A DNA stretch of 64,000 nt from Prochlorococcus sp. AG-412-J13. Lineage in GTDB: Bacteria; Cyanobacteriota; Cyanobacteriia; PCC-6307; Cyanobiaceae. Position 1 is the stretch's first letter. Each line of letters begins with the position of its first letter. The position numbers were made by a program, and so were the translations under genes. Under the pieces are notes generated by a model. It made no database searches. It was given only the letters and a program-made list of their open reading frames with translations, and was not told the DNA's origin. This document shows, piece after piece, positions 3-23,017 of this stretch. Location: NCBI GenBank assembly GCA_003214815.1, contig QCLE01000003.1, forward strand, positions 1 to 64,000, written 5' to 3'.

Positions 3-1229
3 TCGATTACCCCTTCCTCTGCTCTTACAGATGGTCCTTATTCTTTAACCGCTAAAGCAACAGATTCCGCAGGAAACGTTTCACCCCTGTCTGTTGATTT
101 CTCTGTAATCATTGATACAGTTGCTCCAAATATTCCTTCTTCTCTATCTCATATTTCTAATAAAAATCAATCAAAGCCAACAATATCTGGAAAAGCAGAA
201 GCTAACTCTATTGTCACTCTATTATTAAATGAAAACGAAGTCTTAGGAACAACCCCTGCAGATAGTAAAGGTAATTTCTCTTATACTCATGACTCTGATC
301 TTGAAGACGGTACTTATTCTATAACTGCTACTTCAACTGATATAGCAGGAAATATTTCTTTAACTTCTTCAGCTCTGTCTCTAACAATTGATACAATTAC
401 TTCTGAAATTGTCCAAGATATTATTTCAACAATTGTCACCACCTCTGGAGATACAAGTGGAGCTTTAAACTTTAATCAACCTGACCAGACTACTACTACA
501 ATAACAAGTGGTAGTGGTGGAGAAGCCATAACAAGCGTTACTACTACTGCTTCTGGTGAAACCTTCACTTCAACTACTACTACTACTGAATCAGGAACTG
601 TTATTACTAATACTGTATCTGGAGAGTCTCAAGTTGGCACAACCCAAATTTCATTTGCTGCAAACGAATCAGTTACATTAACTATTTCTAATAGCAACTT
701 TTCTGCTGCCGAAAGCCAAGTAGTTATCACCTCAGTCTCAAATGCAAATGCAGAAGCATTTAATTCAATAGAAAGTGCCTTAGTAGGTTCAGGTTCACAA
801 GCATCATTATCAGATGCATTAGCCAATGCAGGCGTTAGTTCCGAAACTATCGCAACAATTAAATCTAGTCTCGGATCAGGGGCAGTGACAATTACACTTT
901 CACCTGTTGTTACTCAGGCAATGATTGAAAATATTTCTCAAGCATTCGCATCGCCTACCACTCAAATTACAACTGCAATCTCTAGTTTAAGTCCTACTGC
1001 TGCTGCTGCAATTGAAACATTAATTGCAGCCTCCTCTCTAACCCCTGAAGTTGCTACTACGATAGTTCCAACAGCGCTAAATGATGCTCTAGCTGCTATC
1101 ACTGCTGAAATACAAGAAATCATTACTCAAGGAGGAGACGTTCCAGCAGAATTAGAAGCATTAGCTAATAAATTATCAGAAATTAAAGCAAGTTCATTAC
1201 CCTCTCTTCAAGCTTCTGAATCATTTTAA
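3..1229 (+). CDS. C-terminal part of a large Ig-like, Thr/Ser-rich surface protein (5' truncated)
   Basis: The frame is open from the first bases of the window to the stop at 1227-1229, so this is the last ~408 residues of a longer protein. Two copies of an Ig-like motif of the form DGxYSxTAxxTDxAGNxS start near nucleotides 30 and 306, exactly 276 nt (92 residues) apart, as in tandem bacterial Ig-like domains of adhesins and other surface proteins. They are followed by a stretch very rich in Thr, Ser and Gly (about residues 140-215) and an Ala-rich, probably helical C-terminus without Cys, transmembrane segment or visible sorting signal. Extracellular or cell-surface location is an inference from the domain type. 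The N-terminus, any signal peptide and the total size lie outside the window. Ligand and function are unknown. Confidence 0.8.
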   Translation, partial: SITPSSALTDGPYSLTAKATDSAGNVSPLSVDFSVIIDTVAPNIPSSLSHISNKNQSKPTISGKAEANSIVTLLLNENEVLGTTPADSKGNFSYTHDSDLEDGTYSITATSTDIAGNISLTSSALSLTIDTITSEIVQDIISTIVTTSGDTSGALNFNQPDQTTTTITSGSGGEAITSVTTTASGETFTSTTTTTESGTVITNTVSGESQVGTTQISFAANESVTLTISNSNFSAAESQVVITSVSNANAEAFNSIESALVGSGSQASLSDALANAGVSSETIATIKSSLGSGAVTITLSPVVTQAMIENISQAFASPTTQITTAISSLSPTAAAAIETLIAASSLTPEVATTIVPTALNDALAAITAEIQEIITQGGDVPAELEALANKLSEIKASSLPSLQASESF

Positions 1230-1434
1230 TTCCAGAGCTATAAATAAATTTATACAAGCAATTTTAACCTTGTAAGCATGGCATGTATTTTCGTACAAAA
1301 TATTGAGATTATTTTCCTAGACTTGATTACTTATTTTGATCATTAAAGTAAAAATTGCAAAAACAATATAACTAGATCTTGAAAAAACCTTTCCATTAGT
1401 TGGTATCATAAATTGATGATTAATTAAATCAGAT

Positions 1435-2367
1435 TTGTTAGTGTATAAAAATTTATATAAAAAAAGCATATTTTATTTATTAAATATTTCCATTCTTCTT
1501 ATTAATGTCTATGCAGAAGAAATAAACCCAAAAAAAGAATATGAATTAAAACGATATCTTTCTCAAATTATTTGGGAAAAAGTAAAAGAAAAAAAAGAAA
1601 ATACTCAAAAGCCTTTAAAGTGGGAACTTTATAAAAATCAAACCCCCATCGATTTTGAAAATAATTTCAAAAAAAATACAAAAAATAAATCAAATAGTAT
1701 TAATAACAATAATGAAGTTTTGCAATCATCAACATTTTTTTTAAGCAGAGGCGAGAAAATTATTGATTATGGCCTAGTTAATGATAATTTTGATTTTTAC
1801 ATTCTAAAAATTGGACTAACGAGAGCATTTAATATTGATTTTTCAAGCGAATTAATTAACTCTAAAAATAATAGCCATAATCCAAACAAAATTAAAAACA
1901 TTTTCTTTGAAAAAGGTTTAAGAAATTTAAGAGGGGGAGCAACATTTCAAGTTTTTTCACAATCAAGGGGGAGACCTATCTCAACAAATATTAGATTAAG
2001 TTATGGAGAAAAATCAGGAGGTTTAAGGAATGGGTATATTTTTAGCGAGATAATAAATAAATATTCGATAAGCAATTGGTTATCCTTTAATCTTAATCCT
2101 AAATTTTCATTTACTAGTTTTGAAAATGTTTACAGTGTTAGCTCCAGTATTAATTTGAGATTAAATCCAAAATTTGAAATAATTCCTGAGGCAAATATTA
2201 ATTTAAAAAATGCCGAGAATAATTTTTCTTTTACTGGAAGGACTTATTTATCAAAAAATATAATTATTGATACTTTCGTTTCTAATTCTTTTGGGGTTAA
2301 TGATATGGCTAAACAATTTAAAACTGAAAGTACCAAATATGGGGTAAATCTTAAAATAAGACTTTGA
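1435..2367 (+). CDS. Secreted hypothetical protein, possibly an outer-membrane beta-barrel
   Basis: 310 residues if the TTG at 1435 is used; a GTG two codons later (1441) is an equally possible start, and there is no clear ribosome binding site. The N-terminus is Lys-rich followed by a hydrophobic segment ending in INVYA before EE, a good Sec signal peptide. The region up to about residue 100 is charged and Asn/Lys-rich. From about residue 100 on, short alternating polar/hydrophobic segments separated by turns run to a C-terminus ending in YGVNLKIRL, which looks like a small outer-membrane barrel. I do not recognise the family. It follows the Ig-like surface protein gene by about 200 bp, so both could contribute to the cell envelope. 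That link is inference only. Confidence 0.6.
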   Translation: MLVYKNLYKKSIFYLLNISILLINVYAEEINPKKEYELKRYLSQIIWEKVKEKKENTQKPLKWELYKNQTPIDFENNFKKNTKNKSNSINNNNEVLQSSTFFLSRGEKIIDYGLVNDNFDFYILKIGLTRAFNIDFSSELINSKNNSHNPNKIKNIFFEKGLRNLRGGATFQVFSQSRGRPISTNIRLSYGEKSGGLRNGYIFSEIINKYSISNWLSFNLNPKFSFTSFENVYSVSSSINLRLNPKFEIIPEANINLKNAENNFSFTGRTYLSKNIIIDTFVSNSFGVNDMAKQFKTESTKYGVNLKIRL

Positions 2368-2439
2368 TTTATTTCTAAAATTTTGGGAATTAAAAATAAT
2401 ATAAAAACTTCAATACAAAAATCATAATTAAAAATCAAT

Positions 2440-3057
2440 TTAAATTTTTCTCCAGACTGCTAGAAGTTTTCCTTGAAAAACAACTTCTTCCAAATTTAAT
2501 TCAATTGGTTCATAAGCTGAATTAGCTGCCTCTAAAAAAATTTTATTTTCTCTCTTAAAAAAATATTTAAGTGTTGTGCCCAATCCTGGCACCATAGCAC
2601 TGATAATTGTTCCATTTCTTAGAGAATATGAATCTTTTATAGGTTCCATCAAAACCATATCTCCATGAGCTATGCATGCATCAATCATGGAGTCACCATT
2701 TACGGTTAATGCAAAAATATCTTTCTTTTTAAGAACTTCAGAAATATCTAATTCTTCATTAACATCTGAAAAAGTCTCAATTAGACCTCCTGCTGCTACG
2801 GAACCCATAATAGGTACTCCTCCTAAGACATCATCTATAATTTGAAGTGTTCTAGCCTTACCTTCTTGCCAACTAATAAAGCCTTTTTGCTGAAGATGCT
2901 TAAGTCTACTTTGGATTGGTGCAGGAGATTTCAAACCCATTGCCTGCATCATTTGTCGTATTGAGGGACTATGGTGAAAATCTTTCATATAATTTTTTAT
3001 CCATTCATAAAGCTCTTTTTGAGCATCTGAAAGATTGTTGCTATCCGAAGAATTCAA
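2440..3057 (-). CDS. lexA: LexA repressor
   Basis: SOS-response repressor, S24 self-cleaving peptidase family, 205 residues (normal length). The N-terminal winged helix-turn-helix spans about residues 8-70 (segment SPSIRQMMQAMGLKS is the recognition region). The C-terminal catalytic domain has an Ala-Gly cleavage bond at 89-90 (VAAGG), the catalytic Ser123 in GDSMID and the general-base Lys164 in TTLKYF, so the machinery for RecA-stimulated self-cleavage is complete. This matters because some cyanobacterial LexA proteins have lost these residues. The start is preceded on its own strand by a perfect inverted repeat that is a plausible autoregulatory operator (see 3065-3088). The divergent neighbour set is metabolic; no other SOS gene is adjacent. 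Confidence 0.95.
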   Translation of the reverse strand: MNSSDSNNLSDAQKELYEWIKNYMKDFHHSPSIRQMMQAMGLKSPAPIQSRLKHLQQKGFISWQEGKARTLQIIDDVLGGVPIMGSVAAGGLIETFSDVNEELDISEVLKKKDIFALTVNGDSMIDACIAHGDMVLMEPIKDSYSLRNGTIISAMVPGLGTTLKYFFKRENKIFLEAANSAYEPIELNLEEVVFQGKLLAVWRKI

Positions 3058-3064
3058 AATTAAA

Positions 3065-3088
3065 ACAAATGTACTCTAATACATTTGT
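3065..3088 (-). promoter_or_regulatory. Candidate LexA operator upstream of lexA
   Basis: A perfect 9-bp inverted repeat, ACAAATGTA and TACATTTGT, separated by 6 bp, sits 8 bp upstream of the lexA start codon. On the lexA strand the flanking sequence gives two overlapping near-matches (one mismatch each) to the cyanobacterial LexA box as I remember it, RGTACNNNDGTWCB. Position over the start region of lexA fits autorepression. The consensus is recalled, not searched, and no binding is shown. Confidence 0.55.
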
Positions 3089-3121
3089 ACCTATAAAATC
3101 AGGTGAGCGCAAGTAAATTAA

Positions 3122-4045
3122 TTAAAGCATGCAAGCTAAAAGTGCTTGTTGTACATGCAATCTATTTTCTGCTTGTTCAAAGATTCTACTTCTTTTACTT
3201 TCAAAAACTTCATCAGTTATTTCTTTAGCTCTATAGGCAGGAAGACAATGAAGAATAATTGCATCTTTTTCAGCCTTGCTTACTAAATTATGATCAATAG
3301 TAAATCCAAAGAAATCTTTATCTTTCTCTTCTTTTTGATTTTCTTCCCCCATAGATGACCAAACATCAGTATATAAAACATTTGCTCCCTGTATTGCAGT
3401 AATAGGATCATTAGTGATTTTCAATAAATCCTTATTTTTATATATTTCATATGCTTTTTTAAGCACCAAAGAGTTCGGTTCATAACCTTTAGGACATGCA
3501 ATCCTAACTTCTACCCCTAATAATGCACCACATAAAATAAGAGAATTTGCGACATTATTGCCATCACCTATAAATGTTAAAATTACATCTTTAAAATCAA
3601 GAAATTCCTCATGAATTGTTAAAAAATCAGCTAGGGCCTGACATGGATGTTCTAAATCTGTAAGAGCATTAATAACTGGCTTTGTAGACCACTTTGCATA
3701 TTCTTCCAAATCTGAATGATCAAATGTTCTAATTGCCATAACATCGCAATATCTACTTAGAACTCTGGCAGTATCTTTAATAGGCTCGCCTCTTCCTATC
3801 TGTGATGTTGTAGGATTAAGGTCAATAGTAGTTCCACCAAGCCTTGTCATCGCAACTTGAAAACTAACTCTTGTACGTGTTGATGACTTATCAAAAATTA
3901 ATCCTAAAACTTTGCTATTAAGGTCAATATTTATTTTTTTATTTTTAAAATTATTTGCAATCTCTAGGATATGTAAAACTTCATCGGTTGATAAATCCAA
4001 GCTTGATAGAAAATTATTATTAGCAAGCTTATTAGGTTTTAACAT
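3122..4045 (-). CDS. argF: Ornithine carbamoyltransferase
   Basis: Condenses ornithine and carbamoyl phosphate to citrulline in arginine biosynthesis, as a cytosolic trimer. The 307-residue length fits the family. The carbamoyl-phosphate motif STRTR is at residues 55-59, HPCQ at 133-136, and the ornithine-side HCLPA motif near residue 265. All are intact. The gene lies between lexA and ftsH with only 28 bp to ftsH upstream on the same strand, so cotranscription after ftsH is possible. Another arginine gene, argD, is at 39.4 kb, so the pathway is dispersed as usual in this lineage. Confidence 0.97.
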   Translation of the reverse strand: MLKPNKLANNNFLSSLDLSTDEVLHILEIANNFKNKKINIDLNSKVLGLIFDKSSTRTRVSFQVAMTRLGGTTIDLNPTTSQIGRGEPIKDTARVLSRYCDVMAIRTFDHSDLEEYAKWSTKPVINALTDLEHPCQALADFLTIHEEFLDFKDVILTFIGDGNNVANSLILCGALLGVEVRIACPKGYEPNSLVLKKAYEIYKNKDLLKITNDPITAIQGANVLYTDVWSSMGEENQKEEKDKDFFGFTIDHNLVSKAEKDAIILHCLPAYRAKEITDEVFESKRSRIFEQAENRLHVQQALLACML

Positions 4046-4073
4046 GAATATTTCTCGTTAAATCTTGATTCTA

Positions 4074-5936
4074 CTATGCAGGCATTTTGCTCTCTTCCAA
4101 GAGAGTTTTGAGATCCTCCCCTTCAATAACTTCTTCTTGGAGGATTTTTTGAGAAATCGATTCAAGAAGAGGTAAATTATTCCTTAAAATTTTAAGTGCA
4201 GTTTCATGCGCATCATCAACTAAATCTCTCACTTCTTTGTCTATTGCTTGAGCAGTAGCATCACTGACAGATCTCCTAGGATTATTGCCATTTCCTAAAA
4301 ACTGACCCCCACCCTGTTTGTCGTAAGCAAGGGGGCCGAGAATATCACTCATCCCAAATGTACCAACCATTTGTTCGGCTATATCAGTTGCTCTTTGTAA
4401 ATCATTTGAAGCTCCTGTAGTGATCTTTCCAAAGACAACCTCTTCTGCAGATCTTCCTCCAAGAAGTGTAGCAATTTGTCCTTTTAATTCCTCTTTAGAA
4501 TTCAGGAATCTTTCTTCAGTTGGCAGTTGAAGAGTATAACCAAGTGCACTCATACCTCTTGGTACAATTGAAATCTTTGCGACTTTTGAACCTCCAGGCA
4601 TAAGATGACCAACAATTGCATGACCAACTTCGTGATAAGCAACGACTTTCTTTTCATCATCTTGCAAAACACGACTCTTCTTTTCCAAACCAGCCACTAC
4701 TCTCTCTATCGCTTCACTTAAATCTTGTTGTTCTACACTTTTTCTTTTAGCTCTGGCTGCAAGTAAAGCAGCTTCATTTACCATATTAGCTAGATCAGCT
4801 CCTGCAAATCCACTGGTGGCTTGGGCAATTGAATCTAAGTCTATTGATTCTGCAAGTTTAACTTTCTTTGTATATATCTCTAATATAGTTTTTCTACCTG
4901 ATAAATCTGGTCTATCAACTAATACTTGCCTATCAAATCTACCAGGCCTTAATAAAGCCGCGTCAAGTACCTCTGGTTGGTTCGTAGCCGCAAGTACTAT
5001 AACTGGCTTATCAGCTGAAGCGAAACCATCCATTTCGGTAAGTAATTGATTAAGAGTTTGCTCTCTTTCATCATTACCTCCAACAACCCCCATAGAACCA
5101 GATCGGCTCTTACCGATAGCATCTAATTCATCTATAAAAATAATACATGGTGCTTTTTTCTTTGCTTGTTCAAACAAATCTCTGACCCTAGCAGCACCTG
5201 CCCCTACAAAAAGTTCAACAAATTCAGAACCTGAAATTATGAAAAAAGGGACTTCTGCTTCTCCGGCAACAGCTTTAGAAAGTAGTGTTTTTCCTGTTCC
5301 TGGAGGTCCAACTAAAAGAACACCTTTAGGTATTCGCGCACCGATATCCGTATATCTCTCAGGTTTCTTTAAAAAATCGACTATTTCTGTTAATTCATCC
5401 TTGGCTTCATCAACTCCAGCCACATCAGCGAATGTTACTTTCGATTCGTCATCGGGAACATAAACTTTAGCTTTACTTTTGGTGAAACTAAGAGCTCCTT
5501 GAGCACCTCCGCCCCCCATGCTTCTTCTAGCAAAGAATTGTAAAACAAGAATAAAAATTAAAGGAGGGACAACCCAGCTCAAGATGGTTGAAAAGAAATT
5601 AGGTTTCTTAGGAGGAGCAGCAGCGAATTCCACCCCTTTACTTTCTAACCTTTGTGGAAGGTCCATATCAAAAATTGGGGTAGTTGCTAAAACAGAAGGG
5701 GCACCTTCTTCTGCTCCATTTAGTTCATATCTGATTTGTTCTTGTGTAATATATGCTCTTTTTACTTCCCCGTCATTAACCTGATCTATAAATAAAGAGT
5801 AGGGAACCCTTGGGATTTGCATGTTTTGATTTGGGAAAAGGCTACTAAATAAAAGTAGTGCGCCAACTCCTATTAAAATAATATTTACAATACCAAATCT
5901 TCTATTAGGTTGATTATCATCTTGTCTTATTGGCAT
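4074..5936 (-). CDS. ftsH: ATP-dependent zinc metalloprotease FtsH
   Basis: Membrane-anchored AAA+ protease, 620 residues. Two N-terminal transmembrane segments (about residues 15-33 and 118-136) bracket a short extracytoplasmic or lumenal domain. The AAA domain follows, with Walker A GPPGTGKT at 210-217, a Walker B ending [10 protein letters not shown] and the second-region-of-homology arginines. The zinc site HEVGH lies near residue 434. Cyanobacterial FtsH paralogues degrade damaged membrane proteins, including photosystem II D1, as homo- or hetero-hexamers. Which of the usual four paralogues this is cannot be settled from one sequence. A TATAAT at 5964-5959 (minus strand) would give a leader of about 15 nt and is a candidate -10 element. 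Confidence 0.96.
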
Positions 5937-6032
5937 GATTATAGGATAAATTAGACTTATTATAAACTAAACCAATATCTTCCGTATCTGTTGATTTTTT
6001 TTGGGTAAGAACCGAACGGTACTTTAACCCAT

Positions 6033-7145
6033 TTAATTTATTAGTGAATTTTGATTCGTTAATTTATTCTTAACACATATATCATTGCCAATCATACTAA
6101 CCATAGAATCTCTTAATTTAATAATTTCATGCATTTCTTTAAATTCAAAATCATCAAAGGGATTCATACTACTGTCTCCTCCTAAAATTTTTGGAGCAAT
6201 AAAAGTAATAATTTCTTGAATACAGTTAGATTTAATAGCTGCTGTAGCTAATCCAGGACCACATTCCCACAAAACTTTGTTGCACCCTCTTTTAGCTAAT
6301 ATTTTAGAAATCAACTCTGGATTGTCTGATGATACCTTTTCAACCTCCACACATTTCGGAATCCTTGTGAGGTAATTTTCATTTGCTGTAGAAAAATCAT
6401 AAATAACTAAAGTTTTTGCCTTAGTACAATCCCAAAGATGAGATTTTGAAGGCAGATCTAAACTTTTTGTGAAAACAACTCGCAAAGGCTCAGGTTTTTT
6501 TGAACCTCTAGTAGTCAAAAGTGGGTTATCTCTTCTTAATGTGTTTCCACCAATGATTATTGCATCAAATTCTGCTCTAAAAGAGTGCACTAATGACCTT
6601 GATTCTTCATTAGTAATCCATTTACTTTGTCCATTTTTTAAAGCTATTCTTCCATCAATACTCATTGCCCACTTAAGAACACCAAATGCCTTTTTGGTTA
6701 TATTTCTATGAATGAAAGCCTTATTCAAATTTAAGGATTCTTTTTTACATAATCCTAAGTGAACTTGTATTCCAGCTTCTCTTAGCAGCTTAATACCTTT
6801 ACCAGCGACTCTTTTATCAGGGTCTTCAATAGATATGTATACCTTTTTTATCCCAGAGGATATCACCTTATCTACACATGGAGGTGTTTTACCATGGTGA
6901 CAGCAAGGTTCGAGATTTACATACATTGATCCGCCTTTAGCATCCTTTTTTAAATTACTAAAAGCCATAGCCTCAGCATGGGGCATCCCTGCTTTATAGT
7001 GAAATCCTTCTGAAACAAGATTTCCATTTTTATCAAGTATTACTGCTCCCACCCTTGGATTAGGACTAGTTGTATTTTTGCCCAACGAAGCCAAAAAAAT
7101 TGCTCTCTTCATCCATTTTGTATGGCTTACATTTTTTCCAGACAT
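6033..7145 (-). CDS. ribD: Bifunctional diaminohydroxyphosphoribosylaminopyrimidine deaminase / reductase RibD
   Basis: Carries out the second and third steps of riboflavin synthesis. The N-terminal deaminase domain has the zinc-site signature HAEAMAF and EPCCHHGKTPPC. The C-terminal half is the reductase, with a WAMSIDGRIA segment and IIGGNTLRRDNPLLT near the nucleotide site. I prefer the ATG at 7145 (370 residues). A GTG at 7178 would add 11 residues and overlap the upstream gene by 19 bp. The partner enzyme RibF is at 12.7 kb. Upstream lie two small cyanobacteria-type genes on the same strand, probably one transcription unit. Confidence 0.93.
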   Translation of the reverse strand: MSGKNVSHTKWMKRAIFLASLGKNTTSPNPRVGAVILDKNGNLVSEGFHYKAGMPHAEAMAFSNLKKDAKGGSMYVNLEPCCHHGKTPPCVDKVISSGIKKVYISIEDPDKRVAGKGIKLLREAGIQVHLGLCKKESLNLNKAFIHRNITKKAFGVLKWAMSIDGRIALKNGQSKWITNEESRSLVHSFRAEFDAIIIGGNTLRRDNPLLTTRGSKKPEPLRVVFTKSLDLPSKSHLWDCTKAKTLVIYDFSTANENYLTRIPKCVEVEKVSSDNPELISKILAKRGCNKVLWECGPGLATAAIKSNCIQEIITFIAPKILGGDSSMNPFDDFEFKEMHEIIKLRDSMVSMIGNDICVKNKLTNQNSLIN

Positions 7146-7159
7146 CTCCAAAACAAAAT

Positions 7160-7660
7160 TCAGTTTATTGATCTCCACTCTTTAACAACAAAGGGAGGAA
7201 CAGGTAACTCAGAAAAAACTCCTGACAAAGATAATCTTAATGGTCTATTTTTATCTAAATTATTAATCAATTCATCAAGATCGAATTCTGCAGCAGCTTG
7301 TCTTCTATCATTTGCTAATTCCACATTAAGTAATGTTTTATCATCTAAAAGCCATTGTTTTCTCCCTGATTCAACCCTCAAGTCAGTGGGATGATCTATC
7401 CTAAGATTTCCTGGATATCCTATTACTCTCAAGATCAATTTATCTGCAAAAAGAGGTGATTTATAAGCTACTAATTGCCAAGTTTCGAAGTCCAAGTCTC
7501 TTAGAAACTCACTACTAGCATTTTTTAATTCCCCATTTATTTCTGTTTCTGCAACTTCTGCAGATACTTTTAATGGGTTAAAAATAAAGGATAGTAGTAA
7601 AAGTAAGGGTAAAATTCCTTTTAAAAAAATATTTTTATTTGATTTTGTAATTTTCTTCAT
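7160..7660 (-). CDS. DUF3122-like secreted protein
   Basis: 166 residues with a clear signal peptide: Lys-rich start, a long Leu/Ile-rich core, cleavage expected after KVSA. The mature part is a compact alpha/beta-looking domain with ELPVPPFVVKEW near the end. It resembles the cyanobacterial conserved family I know as DUF3122, of unknown function; that assignment is from memory. It overlaps the upstream small gene by 26 bp and precedes ribD by 14 bp, suggesting translational coupling in one operon. Periplasmic or lumenal location is inferred from the signal peptide. Confidence 0.72.
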   Translation of the reverse strand: MKKITKSNKNIFLKGILPLLLLLSFIFNPLKVSAEVAETEINGELKNASSEFLRDLDFETWQLVAYKSPLFADKLILRVIGYPGNLRIDHPTDLRVESGRKQWLLDDKTLLNVELANDRRQAAAEFDLDELINNLDKNRPLRLSLSGVFSELPVPPFVVKEWRSIN

Positions 7661-7886
7661 TTTCAGAATCCATTAGGGCATCTAGAGTTACAGCCGTTCT
7701 TACAATAGCTTGATACCTTTTTATTATATTACGATTTTTTTCTATAACTCGAGATAAATTTAAAGTGTCTTTTTCAGAATAGCTAGATGTTAAATCGTTA
7801 GTATCTTCTTCAATAAACTCAAATTCACTGTCTTTATTAATTAGAGTTAACAATAATTCATGTAATCTCTTTCTTCTTTCAGACAA
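7635..7886 (-). CDS. Small hypothetical protein, acidic, helical
   Basis: 83 residues, starting MSERRKRLHELLLTLI. It has no signal peptide or membrane segment. The N-terminus is basic and helical, the middle is acidic (EFEFIEEDTND), and a second helical basic stretch follows (VIEKNRNIIKRYQAIVRTA). I do not recognise a family beyond a likely conserved picocyanobacterial hypothetical. Its end overlaps the DUF3122-like gene by 26 bp in a different frame, which supports real coding and coupling of the two. Confidence 0.65.
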   Translation of the reverse strand: MSERRKRLHELLLTLINKDSEFEFIEEDTNDLTSSYSEKDTLNLSRVIEKNRNIIKRYQAIVRTAVTLDALMDSENEENYKIK

Positions 7887-7969
7887 TTAAAATATTATGA
7901 TAACTCCAACAATAATAAGATAATTTAATAAAACATTCAAACAGTTTAGTTCCTTTTCATTAATTATTG

Positions 7970-9250
7970 ATGACTGAAGTTAATAGAAAAATTCATGTGG
8001 TAGGTATTAATTCATATATATTTGAAGATTTACCTTCCAAATTACAAGATCTATTTATAGAGACAGGCAATATTGCAGTTCCCAGTTCATATTTTGAAGA
8101 AATTAAATCATGGAGCAAAAATGGTTTAGAAAAAAAGAAATCATTTTTTTCGAGCAACAGTAATAACGAACTTGTTAACTGGCTTAGATCTCAAAAAACT
8201 GATGTTATTTTAATTTCAAGAGGAGATCCTCTCTGGTTTGGAATTGGGAGAATATTACTAGAAAATTTTTCAAAAGATGAATTAAGTTTTTACCCTGCAA
8301 ATACTTGCATTCAATTAGCATTTAGTAAGTTAAAGATCCCATGGCAAGATACTGTTAATGTAAGTATTCACGGCAGAGATTCAACTAACTTAGTAGAATC
8401 TCTTAAATCAAAGCCTTCAAGTTTGGCTGTTATTACAGATTCAAATAACAAAAGTTTAGAAATAATCAAAAAAAACTTATCAGAATTAAATCTGATTGAC
8501 TTCTATGATTTTTGGCTCTGTGAAGAGATAGGCTTCGAAAATGAAAATATAAGAAAATTAAATCTTAAAAAGTCATTGCCCTCTGAGATATCAAGTTTGA
8601 ACATTGTTGTTCTTACAAAAACAAAGAAAAATTATTCAAATAATAATCTCCCTCTTTTCGGAATCAATGACAATGTTTTTAAAACTTTTGATGATAGACC
8701 AAATTTATTAACTAAAAGGGAGGTTCGCGTTCAAATCTTAGCTGATATAGAGCTCCCGAAAAATGGTGTAATTTGGGATATAGGAGCAGGTTGTGGGTCA
8801 ATTGGTTTAGAGGCATTAAAATTAAGGCCTAATTTAGATTTGTTTTGTATCGATAAAAGGATTGGATCAAAAGCATTAATACTAGAAAACTCAAAAAAGC
8901 TTGGTGTTAAACCAAAATTTATTTTTGAGGAAAACATAATTAATACCTTACAAACGAGAACTTTAAGTTCTTTTGAAAAACCTAATAGATTAGTAATTGG
9001 AGGATGTGATAAAAAGACTAAACTTCAAATTATTAATACCCTGGCTAAGGGAATGAGTATTGGAGATATTATCGTTATCCCAATAATTGACATTCAAGCT
9101 ATAGAAGAATTGAAACAGGAATTGGAAGATAAAAATTTCAAAACAAATTTAAATTTAATTCAGACCTATAAAAGCTTAACTATCGCAGAGGGATTAAGAT
9201 TAGAACCAAATAATCCTGTTTTTCTATTAAAAGGGAAAAAATATATTTAA
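7970..9250 (+). CDS. cobL: Precorrin-6Y C5,15-methyltransferase (decarboxylating), fused CbiE-CbiT type
   Basis: Corrinoid (cobalamin-type) biosynthesis enzyme that methylates C5 and C15 and decarboxylates precorrin-6/7. The N-terminal half (to about residue 210) is a CbiE-type tetrapyrrole methylase with VILISRGDPLWFGIG. The C-terminal half is a CbiT-type SAM methyltransferase with VIWDIGAGCGSIGLEAL. Full length at 426 residues. The ATG at 7970 is preferred over the TTG just before it. Prochlorococcus makes a B12-like corrinoid, and cobD/cbiB is also in this window (56.1 kb). It faces nadK tail to tail with 6 bp between stops. Confidence 0.92.
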   Translation: MTEVNRKIHVVGINSYIFEDLPSKLQDLFIETGNIAVPSSYFEEIKSWSKNGLEKKKSFFSSNSNNELVNWLRSQKTDVILISRGDPLWFGIGRILLENFSKDELSFYPANTCIQLAFSKLKIPWQDTVNVSIHGRDSTNLVESLKSKPSSLAVITDSNNKSLEIIKKNLSELNLIDFYDFWLCEEIGFENENIRKLNLKKSLPSEISSLNIVVLTKTKKNYSNNNLPLFGINDNVFKTFDDRPNLLTKREVRVQILADIELPKNGVIWDIGAGCGSIGLEALKLRPNLDLFCIDKRIGSKALILENSKKLGVKPKFIFEENIINTLQTRTLSSFEKPNRLVIGGCDKKTKLQIINTLAKGMSIGDIIVIPIIDIQAIEELKQELEDKNFKTNLNLIQTYKSLTIAEGLRLEPNNPVFLLKGKKYI

Positions 9251-9256
9251 ATAATG

Positions 9257-10165
9257 TTATTTGTTAGGTTTAGCCACATGTGGCAAACCCCAGCCTAGTT
9301 TATTTCTTAAAACTTGGAAAAATTCATGATCTTCAAGCCTAATAAACTTCACTGAGTGTTTACTTTTTCTTATTAAAACTCTATCTTCAGGCCAAACATA
9401 ACAGCCAGCATTTCCATCAACAACCATTACCAATCTTTCAGGAGTTGCGGGGAAAACAGTTACTGGCTCCGAATCATTAAAAACCAATGCCCTAGATGCT
9501 AATGAATGTGGAGCAATTGGAGTTAATTGCACTACTGGGCAATCAGGTGTAATAACTGGCCCTCCAGCACTTAGAGAATAGGCAGTAGATCCAGTTGGAG
9601 TAGATAAAATTACTCCATCAGCTGAAATATCCACAGGAGCATGTCGCCCTATAGAAATCTCAAAATGACACATACTTGTAAGAGGTTCTCTATGAAGAGC
9701 CATCTCATTAAGGCAAAGAGACTCCCATCTCCTCTGATCATTCCTCATTACACTAATAATAAAGCAGGTTCTTTCTTCAATATCCCAATTACCATCAATA
9801 ATTTTATCTATTGCTTCATCAAGATTAGATAAATAAGCTTCTGCAAGAAAACCTAAATGACCAGTATTTATTGTAAGGATTGGGATTTTAGCAGGTGCTG
9901 TTTGCCTTGCTGCAGAAAGCACGGTTCCATCTCCGCCAAGAACTATTGCAAATTCCATTGACGAATCAAATCCCTCAGGAACACAATTCGTATATCCCAA
10001 AGGACGAACATGTTGATCAGGATTGGCGAATCCAACCATTCCACCAGAGCTACTAACTCTTACAACTTCATAATTAGAATTTTCCAATTTTTTCTGAACA
10101 GAACTTGCAGTTTGAACAGCAAGTTCTTTCCCATCATTAACGATTAGCCCTGCTTTACGTAACAA
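9257..10165 (-). CDS. nadK: NAD kinase
   Basis: Phosphorylates NAD to NADP; important for supplying photosynthetic electron acceptor. 302 residues. The diagnostic GGDGT motif ([12 protein letters not shown]) lies around residue 77, and the conserved active-site stretch [23 protein letters not shown] is intact. The start is TTG at 10165, the only start giving the complete N-terminal beta strand (AGLIVNDGK). Cyanobacteria usually have two NAD kinases; this window shows one. Confidence 0.94.
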
Positions 10166-13633: not shown

Positions 13634-14689
13634 ATGCTGAATTCAAATACAACCAACTCTGAAGATTTAAGAATTTATCAAATTATTGACGCTAATCTAG
13701 ATAGAGCTAGAGAAGGACTAAGAGTACTAGAGGATTGGGCTAGATTTGGTCTAGGCAAAAAAAAGTATGTTGAAAGAGTTAAAGATTTTAGACAAATTTT
13801 AGGAAAAAATCATTTAGAAGTTTATAAACAATCTAGAAATCATATTGAGGACAAATGCAAAGGATTGACTCATCAAGAGCAAATCAACAGGAAAACCTCT
13901 GAGCAAATTATAAGTTCTAATTCAGGAAGAGTTCAAGAAGCCTTAAGAGTCATAGAAGAATTCTCAAGGGTACATAATCATGAGCTTTCAAAAATCGCTT
14001 CCGAAATTAGATATGAAATTTATGCTATAGAGATAGACTTATTAAGTTTGAGCAAGTGTAAGAAGTCAGAGGAAATATTAAAAGAAAATGACTTATATGT
14101 AATCACAGATCAAAAGGACAATTTACTAGAAATAATAGAAGAGATTTTAATTGCGGGAGTAAGAATCATTCAACATAGATTTAAAACAGGAACTGATAAA
14201 GATCATCTTCAAGAAGCAATTCAAATTAAAAATCTATGTAAAAGATATAATTCTTTGTTCATCGTTAACAACCGACTTGATATAGCTCTAGCATCTAATG
14301 CGGATGGAATTCATCTTGGACAAGATGATTTAGACTTAAAAACTGCAAGAAAATTGTTGGGATATTCAAAAATTATTGGTACAAGCGCAAATAATGAAAT
14401 TGATATTTCTAATGCTCTTAAGGAGGGTTGTGATTATATAGGAATAGGACCAGTATTTGAAACTCCAACGAAAAAGAACAAAAAACCTATAGGGATTGAA
14501 AAACTCAAAACATTAACAAAAGATTTAAACATTCCTTGGTTTGCTATCGGAGGAATTAAGTCAAATAATATTTCATATTTAAAAAGAAATGGGTTTAAAA
14601 AAGTTGCTTTAGTTTCGCAATTAATGAATTCTGAAGATCCTAAAGAAGACGCTATTATGATTCTAAAAGAGTTGTCTCATGAAAATTAA
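13634..14689 (+). CDS. thiE: Thiamine-phosphate synthase with N-terminal ThiD2-like domain
   Basis: Couples HMP pyrophosphate and thiazole phosphate to thiamine phosphate. The synthase domain is residues ~140-351: LYVITDQKDN, the IIQHRFK strand, NNRLDIALASNADGIHLGQDDL, and the phosphate-binding AIGGI. An additional N-terminal domain of about 135 residues is typical of cyanobacterial ThiE and resembles the ThiD2 family as I recall it. It contains an internal near-repeat (AREGLRVLEDWARF and VQEALRVIEEFSRV), as if built from two similar helical halves. The stop overlaps thiS by 11 bp, a translational coupling typical of this pair. Confidence 0.94.
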   Translation: MLNSNTTNSEDLRIYQIIDANLDRAREGLRVLEDWARFGLGKKKYVERVKDFRQILGKNHLEVYKQSRNHIEDKCKGLTHQEQINRKTSEQIISSNSGRVQEALRVIEEFSRVHNHELSKIASEIRYEIYAIEIDLLSLSKCKKSEEILKENDLYVITDQKDNLLEIIEEILIAGVRIIQHRFKTGTDKDHLQEAIQIKNLCKRYNSLFIVNNRLDIALASNADGIHLGQDDLDLKTARKLLGYSKIIGTSANNEIDISNALKEGCDYIGIGPVFETPTKKNKKPIGIEKLKTLTKDLNIPWFAIGGIKSNNISYLKRNGFKKVALVSQLMNSEDPKEDAIMILKELSHEN

Positions 14690-15370: not shown

Positions 15371-16027
15371 TTAGGAAATACTTTTTATAATTCTTAGAGC
15401 CGCCATTGCTGCTCCGTAACCATTATCTATATTCATAACTGCAATACCGGGAGAACAACTTGACAACATACTGTACAAAGCAGTTTCTCCATCCTTGCTA
15501 ACGCCGTAGCCGACTGAGACAGGTACTGCAATTATCGGTTGTGCCAACAATCCTCCCACAACTGTTGCCAAAGCTCCTTCCATTCCAGCACAAACTATTA
15601 ATACATTATATTTATTAATTTCTTCTAACTGACTCATTAAGCGATGAAGTCCTGCTACTCCAACATCTATAAAAGATTGACAATTTACTCCATAAACTTC
15701 AAGCGCTAATTGTGCTTCAAGTGTTACGGCCAAATCACTTGACCCACCTGAAATTATGGCAACTTTTTTATTTGTATTTATTTTATTCAGATTTTTCCCA
15801 ATTATTAGGCAATTTGCTTCTTCAAAGAATCGTGCATCATCATACAAATCTAAAAGATAATTAGCCTTTTCATTATTAATTCTAGTAATGAAAACAACCT
15901 CATTTTTACTTAATACACTTTCAGATAATCTCTTTAATTGGTCGATACTCTTGTCTTGCCCCCAAATAGCCTCAATAAGTCCAAGCCTCTCTCTTCTTTG
16001 AAAATCAAACTTGATATCAAAATTCAT
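15371..16027 (-). CDS. larB: LarB-like protein (nickel pincer cofactor biosynthesis, PurE-related)
   Basis: 218 residues. The C-terminal two thirds is a PurE/AIR-carboxylase-like fold with ISGGSSDLAVTLEAQ, DVGVAGLHRL, CAGMEGALATVVGGL and VPVSVGYGV, as in LarB. LarB carboxylates and hydrolyses nicotinic acid adenine dinucleotide, the first step to the nickel-pincer nucleotide of lactate racemase. LarC and LarE are not nearby, and orphan larB-like genes are widespread in cyanobacteria. The actual substrate here is therefore uncertain. Lies 5 bp downstream of a secreted small protein gene on the same strand. Confidence 0.85.
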   Translation of the reverse strand: MNFDIKFDFQRRERLGLIEAIWGQDKSIDQLKRLSESVLSKNEVVFITRINNEKANYLLDLYDDARFFEEANCLIIGKNLNKINTNKKVAIISGGSSDLAVTLEAQLALEVYGVNCQSFIDVGVAGLHRLMSQLEEINKYNVLIVCAGMEGALATVVGGLLAQPIIAVPVSVGYGVSKDGETALYSMLSSCSPGIAVMNIDNGYGAAMAALRIIKSIS

Positions 16028-16032
16028 CTTTG

Positions 16033-16464
16033 CTACTCTAACTCTCCCTCATAAATTAATTCAAAAGGATTTTCTCCTACATTTAGCGCAGCTTTAACAT
16101 TATCTTCAAATTTTTGTTGGACTATATTTACTTCAGACATTGGTATGCTTTTCCATAATTTTTTACTTTTCCAAGTTACCAATATTAGAGCTTCTTCTTT
16201 TTCTTTATCCCAAAATAATTGTCGCCCCAAAAAACCATCTTGAGAAGATAACCATGGCTCCCATATTTCTTTTTCAGCATCCAACCATGCCGCTTTTGCA
16301 TCGATAGGGACTTTAAGTCTTAATTCCTCTATCACCATTTCACCTTGATAATTATCCATAGTAAGAGCTTTTAAATTGGGAATATCAGATTGAAAAATTA
16401 AAACTACTAAGCAAATTAGTACGAAACAAAATCTTTGAAATTTTTTTTTTAAATTTAATTTCAT
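16033..16464 (-). CDS. TIGR03792-type small secreted protein
   Basis: 143 residues. The hydrophobic N-terminal segment ([14 protein letters not shown]) is a signal peptide or anchor. The rest is a compact ferredoxin-like or ABM-like domain: [38 protein letters not shown] and [15 protein letters not shown]. It resembles the cyanobacterial family TIGR03792, of unknown function but similar to antibiotic-biosynthesis-monooxygenase-type dimeric alpha/beta barrels. It overlaps the stop of the trmD-ispF gene by 4 bp (ATGA type), so it is translationally coupled to it. Confidence 0.75.
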
Positions 16465-17681
16465 TTTTTTTCAAGTAGCACTACTGAATGGCAACTTATA
16501 CCCTCTTCTCTCCCTTCTGGACCCAATTTTTCATTCGTAGTTGCTTTAATCCCAATTAAATTTTCATCAATATTTAAGATTTCAGAAATGTTTTTTTTCA
16601 TTAGTTTTGTATGTGGCATGATTTTTGGCCTTTCAGCGACTAGAACACTATCAATATTATTTATTTCCCAACCATTTTGTCTTATCAAGTCAATTACTTT
16701 TGATAACAAAAACAAGCTATCAGCATTTTTCCATTTTTCATCAGATGGGGGGAAATACTTTCCTATGTCCCCCAGCGACAGTGCTCCTAATAATGCATCC
16801 ATTATTGAGTGACTTAAAACATCAGCATCACTATGCCCATCCAATCCTAAATTTTCAGGATGACACAATTTTACACCGCCAATAATTAAATCTCTATCCT
16901 TTACAAGTTTATGAATATCGTATCCATTACCTATTCGAAATTTCATGAATTTATTGTATTCTTTTATCATTCTCTTACTTTGTGGGGATTTTTTGTAGTT
17001 TTCATTTGAAAATAAGTCACTTCTTCTCTCTAATGTTCTTTCAATACTTTTTCGTCTTCTCCACGATTTAATCTCTTCATGATTACCACTCACTAAAATA
17101 TCTGGCACTTTCATATCTTTAAAAGTTAACGGCCTCGTGTACTGAGGATATTCTAATAAAGAAGCATTATGACTCTCATCAACTAAAGAGTCTGGATCAC
17201 CAAGAGTTCCTGGCAATAATCTAGTCAAACCGTTAATTATTGATATAGCGGGTATTTCACCTCCAGAAAGTATATAATCGCCTATAGATATCTCTTCATC
17301 AGCTAAATATCTAATCCTTTCATCAAAACCTTCATATTGACCACAAATAACTATTATTTGATCCAAAGTGGACCATCTCGCAAGATCCTTTTGCTTTAAG
17401 ACTTTACCCTGTGGGGTCATCAACAAAGTTTTACTTTTAGGTAATTTTCTAATTGATTCATATGCCTTATAAATAGGTTCAGGTTTTAATAGCATTCCTG
17501 CTCCTCCACCATAAGGCTTATCGTCTACTTGTCTGTAAGAACCTTCACCATATTCTCTTAAATCATGTAAATTTACATCGATCAAATTCTTATCTAGAGC
17601 TCTTGTTATGACCCCTAAATTATTTATTAATTCAAAAGATTTAGGGAACAATGTAATTACATCAAAATTAAAACTACTCAT
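16461..17681 (-). CDS. trmD-ispF: TrmD-IspF fusion: tRNA (guanine37-N1)-methyltransferase plus MEcPP synthase
   Basis: One uninterrupted frame of 406 residues encodes two enzymes normally separate. Residues 1-~228 are TrmD (DVITLFP start, [10 protein letters not shown], the trefoil-knot SAM site [12 protein letters not shown] and [11 protein letters not shown]), which makes m1G37 in tRNA. Residues ~246-406 are IspF (NGYDIHKL and [20 protein letters not shown] with zinc His/Asp, then [10 protein letters not shown]), the MEP-pathway cyclase for isoprenoids. The linker [19 protein letters not shown] has no stop, but an ATG at 16946 lies exactly where a free IspF would begin (residue 246). So separate translation of IspF from the same frame is possible. 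TrmD starts right after the era stop. Confidence 0.88.
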
Positions 17682-18593
17682 CTAGAAATCTTCCACATAA
17701 CCAAACTCAATTAACCTTGAATCTTTTTTTCTCCAATTTGGAACAACTTTCACAAACAACTCCAGGTGAATTGGATCATCAATCAATTTTGACATATTTG
17801 ATCTTGCTGACTGACCAATAGTTTTTAACATTGAACCTTTCTTTCCAATAAGAATTCCTTTTTGAGTTGATCTTTCAACAATAATGGTAGCCAAAATAGC
17901 TGTAAAACTTTTGCCATTTTTTCTTTTTATTTCCTCTATCTTTTCTACCTTGACTGCAACACTATGAGGTACTTCTTCTCTCGTATATATTAATACCTGC
18001 TCTCTTATTAAATCAGATAATAAATTATCTAATGGTTGGTCGCATATCGTATCTTCGCTATAAAGTTTTGGTCCCTCTGGAAGAAAATTAAGTGCCATAT
18101 CAACTAGTTCAGAACATCCTTCTCCTTGAGAAGCACTTACAATTTGAAAATTTCTATTAATTCCAAAAAATCTTCTATATTGATCTAATCGTAAATTCCT
18201 AAATTCTTTATTAACCAAATCCCACTTATTCAATGCAACAATAAACTCAGTTTTATTTGCGATTAAAAAGTTCAATATATATTCATCACCTCTACCAGGT
18301 TCTTCACTTGAATCAATTACAAAAATTACCATATCAACTCCATTAATTGCAGATTTTGCGTTTTTTACTAGTATCTCTCCAAGGCGATGATGAGGTTTAT
18401 GAACACCTGGTGTATCGACAAAAATTATTTGTCCATTGTTTGTAGTAAGTATTCCTTTTAATTTATTTCTAGTAGTTTGTGCTATTGGAGAAGTAATTGT
18501 TATTTTTTCTCCAATCAGTTTATTTATTAAAGTAGATTTACCCACATTTGGCCTTCCTAGTAAAGTTACAAACCCAGATCTATAATTAGTCAA
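17682..18593 (-). CDS. era: GTPase Era
   Basis: Ribosome-assembly GTPase acting on 16S rRNA and the 30S subunit. 303 residues. G1 is GRPNVGKST, G3 DTPGVHKPHHRL, and G4 NKWD. The C-terminal KH domain carries IVERSTQKGILIGKKGSMLK, the RNA-binding GxxG loop, and the ending is RLIEFGYVEDF. The stop is directly followed by the trmD-ispF ATG with no gap. Confidence 0.96.
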   Translation of the reverse strand: MTNYRSGFVTLLGRPNVGKSTLINKLIGEKITITSPIAQTTRNKLKGILTTNNGQIIFVDTPGVHKPHHRLGEILVKNAKSAINGVDMVIFVIDSSEEPGRGDEYILNFLIANKTEFIVALNKWDLVNKEFRNLRLDQYRRFFGINRNFQIVSASQGEGCSELVDMALNFLPEGPKLYSEDTICDQPLDNLLSDLIREQVLIYTREEVPHSVAVKVEKIEEIKRKNGKSFTAILATIIVERSTQKGILIGKKGSMLKTIGQSARSNMSKLIDDPIHLELFVKVVPNWRKKDSRLIEFGYVEDF

Positions 18594-21412: not shown

Positions 21413-23017
21413 CTATAAATCTGCAAAACCTTTTTTCTTTTTATTATTTTTTTGTTTTTTTATTGGTTTGTTACTACTCATTCCTCCCATTCCTGGCATT
21501 CCTCCCATTCCTGGCATTCCTCCCATTCCTGGCATTCCTCCCATTCCTGGCATTCCTCCCATTCCTGGCATTCCTCCCATTCCTGGCATTCCTCCCATTC
21601 CTGGCATTCCTCCCATTCCTGGCATTCCTCCCATTCCTGGCATTCCTCCCATTCCTGGCATTCCTCCCATTCCTGGCATTCCTCCCATTCCTGGCATTCC
21701 TCCCATTCCTGGCATTCCTCCATTGGACATTTGTTTCATGAAACCTCTCATTCTTTGAAAATCGGCTAAGACTTTATCCACATCTTTTGCTTCATAGCCA
21801 CTACCCTGAGCAATTCTTTGTCTTCTTGACGGCTGAGCGGCGAGAACCTCAGGTTTTTGTTTCTCTTCAAGAGTCATAGAAGAGATCATAGATTCTATTT
21901 TCTTGAGTTGATCTTCTCCATCTTTTATCATCCCATCATCAATTTTATTCATACCAGGTATTAATTTTATCAACCCACCGAGTGATCCCATCCTTTTAAT
22001 TAATCTCATTTGCTTAACAAAATCATTAAAGTCAAAAGTTGCTTCTTGCAGTTTCTTTTGCATAGCTTCTGCATCAGCAAGCTCAACTTCCTTTTGGGCT
22101 TTTTCAACAAGTGTCAATACATCACCCATACCTAAAATTCTGCTAGCCATTCTTTCTGGATGGAATGGTTGTAGCGCCTCTATTTTTTCCCCTACACCAA
22201 TAAATTTGATAGGTTTACCACTTATTTTTCTTATTGATAAAGCAGCTCCTCCTCTTGAATCGCCATCCAACTTAGTTAGTATCGCCCCTGAAATTCCTAC
22301 TTTTTCATGAAATGACTTTGTCAAGTCAGCAGCTTCTTGCCCAATCATAGAGTCAACAACCAGTAAAACCTCATCAGGATTAGACACTTCTTTTATCCGA
22401 ACCATTTCACTCATCATTGAATCATCAATTTGCAATCTTCCTGCTGTGTCAATAATGATCGAGTTAAAATTATTTTGATTTGCATAATTCAATGCGTTCT
22501 TCGTTATCTCTTCTGGTTTGCTATTTTTTTCTTTAGCTGAAAAAACTTCCAAGTCATATTGACTTCCTAATGTTTTAAGTTGTTCTACAGCGGCTGGTCG
22601 ATAAATATCTGCAGCCACCAAAAGAACCTTTTTTTCTTTTTCCTTTAAATAAAGGCCTAATTTTCCTGTTGCAGTTGTTTTACCAGCTCCCTGAAGTCCT
22701 GCCATTAAAATAACAGTGGGACTCTTTTCATTTTCGTTTAATGGAGAATTTTCATTCCCCATTATGTTAATCAATTCTTTATTTACAACTTCAATAAATT
22801 TTTGACCAGGGTTTACACCCCTAACTACTTCTTCTCCAATAGCTTTATCTTTAACATCTGTTATAAACTCTTTTACTACAGATAAACTAACATCGGCATC
22901 TAGAAGTGCTCTTTTTACCTGAATCAAGGCATCATTGATATTATTTTCACTAATTTTTGCTTCGCCTCTTAAACCTTTTACTGCGTCTTCAAAGCGTGAT
23001 GAGAGTTCATCAAACAT
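21413..23017 (-). CDS. ffh: Signal recognition particle protein Ffh with expanded GGMPGM repeat tail
   Basis: SRP54 GTPase that binds signal sequences and SRP RNA. The N and G domains (1-~300) carry GLQGAGKTTATGKLG, DTAGRLQ and TKLDGD. The Met-rich M domain follows (QMRLIKRMGSLGGLIKLIPGM and SRRQRIAQGSGY for RNA binding). The C-terminus has a run of 13 identical six-residue units (GGMPGM) encoded by a perfect 18-bp tandem repeat, then a Lys-rich tail ending KKGFADL. Total 534 residues, longer than typical (~450-490) because of the repeat. Its RNA partner is encoded at 49.6 kb in this window. Confidence 0.96.
   Translation of the reverse strand: MFDELSSRFEDAVKGLRGEAKISENNINDALIQVKRALLDADVSLSVVKEFITDVKDKAIGEEVVRGVNPGQKFIEVVNKELINIMGNENSPLNENEKSPTVILMAGLQGAGKTTATGKLGLYLKEKEKKVLLVAADIYRPAAVEQLKTLGSQYDLEVFSAKEKNSKPEEITKNALNYANQNNFNSIIIDTAGRLQIDDSMMSEMVRIKEVSNPDEVLLVVDSMIGQEAADLTKSFHEKVGISGAILTKLDGDSRGGAALSIRKISGKPIKFIGVGEKIEALQPFHPERMASRILGMGDVLTLVEKAQKEVELADAEAMQKKLQEATFDFNDFVKQMRLIKRMGSLGGLIKLIPGMNKIDDGMIKDGEDQLKKIESMISSMTLEEKQKPEVLAAQPSRRQRIAQGSGYEAKDVDKVLADFQRMRGFMKQMSNGGMPGMGGMPGMGGMPGMGGMPGMGGMPGMGGMPGMGGMPGMGGMPGMGGMPGMGGMPGMGGMPGMGGMPGMGGMPGMGGMSSNKPIKKQKNNKKKKGFADL
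21483..21716. repeat. 13 perfect tandem copies of an 18-bp unit inside ffh
   Basis: Unit on the plus strand is CCTCCCATTCCTGGCATT; 234 bp = 13 x 18 with no mismatch that I can see. On the coding (minus) strand it encodes GGMPGM. The unit has no stop in several frames, which makes long meaningless open frames on both strands. Flanks are CATTCCT-like partial units at each end. Such a homogeneous array suggests recent slippage expansion. Confidence 0.97.

What the first reader, a model, noticed from the sequence alone, without database searches (positions are those of the whole stretch)
16461..17681. In-frame fusion of TrmD (tRNA m1G37) and IspF (isoprenoid MEP pathway)
Two essential, unrelated enzymes share one uninterrupted frame with a 17-residue polar linker. 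A Met codon sits exactly at the normal IspF start, so the frame may yield a fusion, separate IspF by internal initiation, or both. TrmD is a dimer and IspF a trimer, so a stable fusion would build unusual higher-order assemblies.
Basis: seen in the sequence. Interest (0 to 1): 0.7.

Follow-up and report, generated by a model that had tools for sequence, protein, structure and literature searches.

The report
Fused TrmD-IspF gene, an insertion site
In this ocean cyanobacterium two essential enzymes, one that modifies transfer RNA and one that makes isoprenoids, really are encoded as a single gene, and in many relatives that gene has been cut apart at one exact spot by small inserted DNA elements, so the fusion looks like the empty form of an insertion site.

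Summary
In detail: window 16461-17681, minus strand, is one open frame of 406 aa with complete TrmD (aa 5-231) and IspF (249-405) matches. It is neither a private mutation nor an error: of 147 genomes of the window's genus (80% or more complete) 91 hold the fusion, and other genera of the family have it too. 117 fused loci of the genus keep a 20-codon linker without stop or indel; linker dN/dS is 0.43.

The larger result lies at the junction. In 38 of the 147 genomes trmD and ispF are apart; in the loci measured, 0.7-9.4 kb of varied cargo separates them. In 29 of 53 split loci (20 by a strict criterion) the TrmD tail still holds an in-frame remnant of the IspF start, often as ...NEYDIYPDW*, while ispF has a new start; joining the flanks in silico gives a stop-free fusion in all 29. 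Three genomes carry a tyrosine recombinase at the junction (two intact, one decayed), and copies of the element end punctuate cargo arrays. I conclude that the IspF start codons are an attachment site for site-specific elements and that the fusion is the empty site. Recombination activity, and whether the fused protein is made, are untested.

The parts
16461..17681 (-). Fused trmD-ispF open frame, 406 aa, stop codon at 16461-16463
16989..17669 (-). TrmD domain, aa 5-231
   Evidence: TIGR00088 match aa 5-231
16941..17000 (-). Linker as I define it, aa 228-247 (20 codons), same length in 117 fused loci of the genus
16944..16946 (-). Internal ATG (Met246) at the usual IspF start; present in 96 of 96 unique fused sequences of the genus
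16467..16937 (-). IspF domain, aa 249-405
   Evidence: TIGR00151 match aa 249-405
16911..16931 (-). Codons 251-257 (GNGYDIH), the proposed empty attachment core (GGTAATGGATACGATATTCAT in the window)
   Evidence: position at which split loci leave the fused sequence; function inferred
17682..18593 (-). era, GTPase gene directly upstream
16033..16464 (-). TIGR03792 family gene; its ATG overlaps the stop of the fusion
15371..16027 (-). larB, next gene downstream

Best explanation
The gene encodes a real TrmD-IspF fusion, inherited in this lineage and probably formed by loss of a single in-frame stop of an older adjacent trmD-ispF pair (inferred). The first codons of IspF inside it (GNGYDIH) are the chromosomal attachment site of small mobile elements moved by a tyrosine recombinase. 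Integration puts a short new tail and stop on TrmD (often ending EYDIYPDW) and supplies ispF with a new start codon, so that two separate enzymes are encoded, one on each side of the element; excision would restore the fusion. Repeated insertion builds arrays of cargo genes, many of them methyltransferase or sugar genes. Shown: the sequences, the fixed boundary, the remnants, the recombinase genes at the site. Inferred: recombination activity, reversibility, and that the fusion is translated as one protein.
For: Fusion: one stop-free frame with both curated models above cut-off; 91 of 147 genus genomes; 117 fused loci with an unchanged linker length, linker dN/dS 0.43 against 0.13 (TrmD) and 0.09 (IspF). 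Site: core remnant in the TrmD tail with at most 1 mismatch in 20 of 53 split loci (shuffled mean 0.135, maximum 2), in frame in 29 of 29 at up to 3 mismatches (shuffled in-frame mean 4.0, maximum 8); longer end pattern 31 times in the 53 loci, 8 of them inside cargo arrays, none reversed (shuffled mean 0.97, maximum 5); in 37 chosen whole genomes 8 hits, all at this locus, reversed control 0. Recombinase between trmD and ispF in G304 and G247 and decayed directly behind TrmD ...NEYGIYPDW in G549.
Against: Only three junction loci show a recombinase; in Pfam the two intact ones score 20.0 and 25.2 bits, under the cut-off of 27.1, and no solved structure matches at E 0.01. 15 of 53 split loci have TrmD tails of no recognised type and 24 of 53 have no core remnant even at 3 mismatches. 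At 3 mismatches the remnant count is weak without the frame (29 against shuffled mean 12, maximum 22), and 1 of 7 adjacent genomes reaches it too. A first, shorter scan for inner core copies was no better than shuffles (16 against 13.3). Fused and split states are clustered on the tree (19 changes against 27 for shuffled labels), so much of the pattern is inherited. No excised form was seen.
Confidence: 0.78

Rival explanations
1. One reading frame but mainly two products: IspF is made by internal initiation at Met246 (or GTG/TTG in relatives) and the fused chain is minor or cleaved. This concerns the product and can be true together with the attachment-site reading.
For: ATG at the IspF start in 96 of 96 unique fused sequences of the genus; GTG near the place in L166, L167, L170 and TTG in L190; split relatives manage with separate enzymes.
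Against: No stop or indel in the linker of 117 loci, and purifying selection on it (dN/dS 0.43), which separate products would not need. The 15 bases upstream of the internal ATG show no ribosome-binding sequence to the eye.
Confidence: 0.3
2. The split loci arose by ordinary homologous recombination at a variable locus, with one ancient insertion whose ends were then shared; no site-specific recombinase acts now.
For: Cargo is varied while both flanks are conserved genes; recombinases are rare (10 of 266 genus genomes hold a relative, three matches at the junction); states are clustered on the tree.
Against: Recombinase genes sit next to the ends; end copies lie between cargo genes in one orientation only; remnants occur at 1 mismatch or less in loci of four genus codes with their own genus's linker in front.
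Confidence: 0.17
3. Separate genes are ancestral for the genus and the fusion arose repeatedly by deletion of the material between them.
For: In the class outside the family the genes are separate or adjacent with a stop in the cases read; the tree cannot give the direction of change.
Against: TrmD tails of split loci hold IspF codons in frame in loci of four genus codes at 1 mismatch or less, which calls for a fused ancestor of those loci; independent deletions would not be expected to give one linker length in 117 loci.
Confidence: 0.06
4. Sequencing or assembly artefact.
For: None found beyond one frameshifted genome (G261, L154).
Against: Many separately sequenced genomes, single-cell and cultured, hold the same frame.
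Confidence: 0.01

Closest known systems
IspD/IspF bifunctional enzyme
   Same: IspF as the C-terminal half of a natural fusion; solved examples 1w55 and 8xhu align to the IspF part
   Different: Partner here is TrmD, a tRNA enzyme outside the pathway; the IspDF model NF006899 scores 207.6 bits under its cut-off of 417 and covers only the IspF part
TrmD-Tm1570 fusion of Calditerrivibrio nitroreducens (PMC11187310; listing and start of abstract seen)
   Same: TrmD with a second domain in one chain
   Different: The second domain is another knotted protein, not IspF; no insertion site is mentioned in what I saw
Tycheposons (as described in passages of PMC10187409 and PMC10872708; the original 2023 paper is not held)
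   Same: Cargo-bearing integrative elements with a tyrosine recombinase, described in Prochlorococcus
   Different: They are tied to tRNA genes; here the target is the start of ispF and no tRNA lies in the 11 recombinase loci of 3.5-4.6 kb
Picocyanobacterial integrase family upstream of tRNA-Phe or tRNA-Cys (PMC10187409, passages)
   Same: Divergent tyrosine integrase in variable islands of Prochlorococcus and Synechococcus
   Different: Target is a tRNA; I did not compare the sequences, so kinship is untested
Integrons (recalled)
   Same: Short site copies between cargo genes at one locus
   Different: Cargo runs both ways (62 with trmD, 35 against) and the site is inside coding sequence; attC and IntI were not tested

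Membership tests
TrmD (tRNA m1G37 methyltransferase) | Equivalog model NF000648 above its curated cut-off | tested here: met
   284.1 bits, cut-off 220
TrmD (tRNA m1G37 methyltransferase) | Methylates G37 of tRNA | not testable with these tools
   needs an assay
IspF (MEcDP synthase) | Model TIGR00151 above its curated cut-off over the whole domain | tested here: met
   203.1 bits, cut-off 116.45, profile 1-155 of 155
IspD/IspF bifunctional enzyme | IspD domain in front of IspF (NF006899) | tested here: not met
   207.6 bits, cut-off 417, match starts at aa 240
Tyrosine-recombinase integrative element | Tyrosine recombinase gene inside the element | tested here: inconclusive
   Met in G304 and G247 (PHROG 1e-20 and 2.4e-13), decayed in G549; not seen in the other split loci examined, and Pfam scores are under cut-off
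Tyrosine-recombinase integrative element | Both ends meet the chromosome at one fixed core that the empty site also holds | tested here: met
   20 of 53 split loci at 1 mismatch or less, flanks rejoin stop-free in 29 of 29; 24 of 53 show no core remnant
Tyrosine-recombinase integrative element | Recombination at the site | not testable with these tools
   needs an assay
Tycheposon | Attached to a tRNA gene | tested here: not met
   Insertion in ispF; no tRNA in 11 recombinase loci
Integron | IntI integrase and attC hairpins | not tested
   no such scan was run

The most novel reading that the evidence does not exclude
An active, integron-like cassette system of picocyanobacteria uses the start of an essential gene as its attachment site and, by integrating and excising, reversibly splits and re-fuses a two-pathway enzyme, so that cells of one population alternate between a TrmD-IspF fusion and two free enzymes while exchanging surface-sugar genes.
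Probability: 0.38. Interest if true: 0.85.

Novelty: new variant of a known kind. Interest (0 to 1): 0.62.

Why it matters
It gives one locus where close relatives hold either a fused or a split form of two essential enzymes, so that the worth of a gene fusion can be compared directly. It also points to a protein gene as insertion site for cargo elements in a very abundant phototroph, where the sites described in the papers I could read passages of are tRNA genes.

Tried and rejected
Artefact or private mutation: rejected, many separately sequenced genomes. Phage origin: recombinase against 50,697 phage records, no match; against IMG/VR, 47 pattern stretches, none confirmed; end pattern in IMG/VR, exact matches only, 0; the fused gene against phages gave a 76-base match at 77.6% in two unannotated records labelled Listeria phage, not followed. 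tRNA target: none in the 11 recombinase loci. Solved relatives of the recombinase: none at E 0.01. NCBIfam names for the two junction recombinases: none at E 0.01. A first, shorter scan for inner core copies was no better than shuffles (16 against mean 13.3); the longer pattern separated. Structure of the fusion: AlphaFold2 on 17 near-identical sequences failed (mean pLDDT 41.3), so nothing is read from it and no fold search was made. Fusions outside the family: open-frame lengths suggested them in G073 and G083, but both hold stops between the genes; other genomes of the class were not read at this level.

Loci were chosen, not sampled at random: of 190, 128 were classed fused (the frameshifted L154 among them), 53 split, 7 adjacent, 2 incomplete. 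L007 and L035 were dropped from the tree as too short. 61 of 97 does not apply anywhere; cargo counts include the two recombinases.

Papers: no paper of the held open-access library holds trmD, ispF, fusion and cyanobacteria together. The 15 papers listed and the 10 of 35 listed showed none that looked like a report of this fusion, judged by titles and starts of abstracts. One search (10 of 131 listed) showed none on an ispF insertion site. The 2023 paper on tycheposons is not held; searches list papers that name or cite it.

Full report
WHAT IS THERE. The frame at 16461-17681 lies on the minus strand and codes for 406 residues. TrmD and IspF models both match above their curated cut-offs, and solved TrmD and IspF chains match the two halves separately. 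era ends directly upstream (17682) and the ATG of a TIGR03792 gene overlaps the stop of the fusion (16464), followed by larB.

HOW WIDESPREAD. The own genome has one copy. Related contigs are titled Prochlorococcus or uncultured Synechococcaceae. One search covered 392 genomes of the family, 80% or more complete. I transcribed by hand the 147 rows of the window's genus: 91 have the fusion as one stop-free match (one, G049, is cut at aa 359), 38 have the two domains as separate matches (in two of these, G016 and G319, on different contigs), 7 are unclear (contig ends, partial matches, or the frameshifted G261), and 11 have no match. Of the 24 genomes at 99% or more on at most six contigs, 13 are fused and 11 split. 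Outside the genus, (69 chosen genomes) lists 11 single matches over essentially the whole query without a stop (G134, G145, G182, G203, G218, G219, G221, G224, G242, G397, G402), one stop-free match cut at aa 344 (G133), and 15 family genomes with one in-frame stop between the domains. Seven adjacent pairs that I read are in frame with gaps of 52-154 bases, so loss of one stop is the simplest origin of the fusion (inference).

IS THE FUSED FRAME SELECTED. 117 fused loci of the genus have a 20-codon linker and no stop; in 96 unique sequences dN/dS (Nei-Gojobori counts summed over pairs, Jukes-Cantor correction) is 0.43 in the linker, 0.13 in TrmD, 0.09 in IspF. The linker is loosely but measurably constrained. 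ATG stands at the IspF start in 96 of 96. In other genera the place has ATG (L168, L169, L178-L181), GTG a few codons before the core (L166, L167, L170) or TTG (L190). Sequence therefore cannot decide between one product and two.

THE JUNCTION IN SPLIT GENOMES. I fetched 80 regions in four calls of 20, the first two of split genus genomes, the others mixed. In the 53 loci classed as split the distance between the domains is 301-9411 bases, in the genus 749-9411. The TrmD tails end in YPDW or YPNW (21 of 53), W.W[DN]x (12), DPW plus 1-3 residues (5) or something else (15). Many tails first run through the IspF start: fused [14 protein letters not shown] against split MKFRIGNEYDIYPDW-stop. The 14-base core pattern GGNAAYGRNTAYGA occurs in the tail with at most one mismatch in 20 of 53 loci (200 shuffles: mean 0.135, maximum 2) and with at most three in 29 of 53 (mean 12, maximum 22; in frame mean 4.0, maximum 8; observed in frame 29 of 29). 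The three-mismatch count alone is weak, and 1 of 7 adjacent genomes reaches it; frame and the stricter class carry the argument. Loci at one mismatch or less come from four genus codes (g1, g61, g63, g39). Downstream, ispF has a new start, often MT...[12 protein letters not shown], and its domain is whole. Joining the flanks at the core gives a stop-free frame in 29 of 29.

ENDS AND ARRAYS. The longer pattern GGNAAYGANTAYGANATTYAYCCNGAYTGGTAR (at most 8 mismatches) has 31 hits in the 53 loci, 23 at the TrmD stop and 8 further inside, all in the trmD direction; 30 shuffles gave a mean of 0.97, maximum 5. Inner copies lie between cargo frames in L035, L044, L047, L150, L151 and L152, one more stands 50 bases after the TrmD stop in L152, and one 133 bases before ispF in L131. 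In L131, L047 and L152 they read, by eye, as short frames such as MTRKSPQLRIGNEYDIYPDW, which look like the joint of two elements in tandem. A palindrome-like TAGTTATAACTAG follows the TrmD stop with at most 3 mismatches in 11 of 53 loci (shuffled mean 0.34, maximum 2). ACAGAT / TTACAG words are enriched on both flanks. In 37 chosen whole genomes the end pattern (31 bases, up to 3 mismatches) occurs 8 times, each at the coordinates of the trmD-ispF locus, and the reversed control never.

RECOMBINASES. A search for PF00589 in 61 chosen genomes placed matches between trmD and ispF in G304 and G247. The proteins (505 and 524 aa, 47% identical) score below Pfam's cut-off (20.0 and 25.2 against 27.1) but match PHROG integrase families at 1e-20 and 2.4e-13. 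In G304 the gene begins about 80 bases after the TrmD stop; in G247 about 60 bases after the start of an inner end copy. A profile search over 266 genomes of the genus found relatives in 10, with 11 matches. G549 has TrmD ending FRLSNEYGIYPDW-stop followed directly by a decayed copy. Seven matches lie beside a 370- or 371-aa gene (L193-L197, L199, L201), which in L201, the one scanned, matches flavorubredoxin and flavin-reductase models far below cut-off. One lies beside a gene that I take from memory for argJ (L200). None of the 11 loci, 3.5-4.6 kb each, holds a tRNA gene.

CARGO. 97 frames of 90 aa or more, the two recombinases among them, fall into 76 clusters, 67 of them singletons; 62 run with trmD, 35 against; four of the 53 loci have none. 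The commonest cluster, in 12 loci, is a polysaccharide export protein (PF02563 in the one member scanned, L038). Of 82 frames scanned, the families with most members are methyltransferases (8 for PF13489), then glycosyltransferase 2 (3); epimerase, acetyltransferase, FkbM methyltransferase and formyltransferase have 2 each. A role in cell-surface variation is plausible; one in phage resistance is a guess.

HISTORY. On a tree of era plus part of trmD (81 loci, 5 of them from another genus) fused and split states need 19 changes, at least 9 forced by starred branches, against 27 for shuffled labels. The state changes often but is also inherited, and the tree gives no direction. The IspF remnants say that, for the loci that carry them, the fusion came first.

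HOW IT PROBABLY WORKS. A tyrosine recombinase joins an element end that resembles the IspF start to the chromosomal IspF start. The left joint puts a new short tail and stop on TrmD; the right joint gives ispF a start. Excision would restore the fusion. Most loci seen have lost the recombinase, are old, or are moved in trans. Each step of activity is inference.

KNOWN AND NEW. Fusions of IspF (IspDF) and of TrmD (TrmD-Tm1570) with other partners are known, and integrative elements with tyrosine recombinases are known in Prochlorococcus at tRNA genes (passages). The pairing TrmD-IspF and the ispF-start target were not met in my searches, which cover open-access papers only.

LIMITS. 

Noticed in passing
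window 21479-21721, inside the frame 21413-23017 (minus strand): A perfect tandem array, 18 bases x 13.5 copies at 100% match, codes for a Gly-Met-rich repeat near the C-terminus of a protein that I take by eye for the signal-recognition particle protein Ffh.
   Followed up: partly
L193-L197, L199, L201: Relatives of the junction recombinase lie beside a 370- or 371-aa flavodiiron-like gene in other genomes, which suggests a second protein-gene insertion site.
   Followed up: partly
L150, about 2662 bases after the TrmD stop: A broken extra copy of part of ispF lies inside the cargo array (third match of G298, with stops), perhaps left by an earlier insertion.
   Followed up: no
G002, G317 and nine other genus genomes: 11 of 147 genomes give no match to either domain, two of them rated 99% complete; a contig break at the locus seems likelier than loss of both genes.
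   Followed up: no
window 13634-14689, plus strand: A 351-aa frame that looks by eye like a thiamine-phosphate synthase with an extra N-terminal domain (not searched).
   Followed up: no
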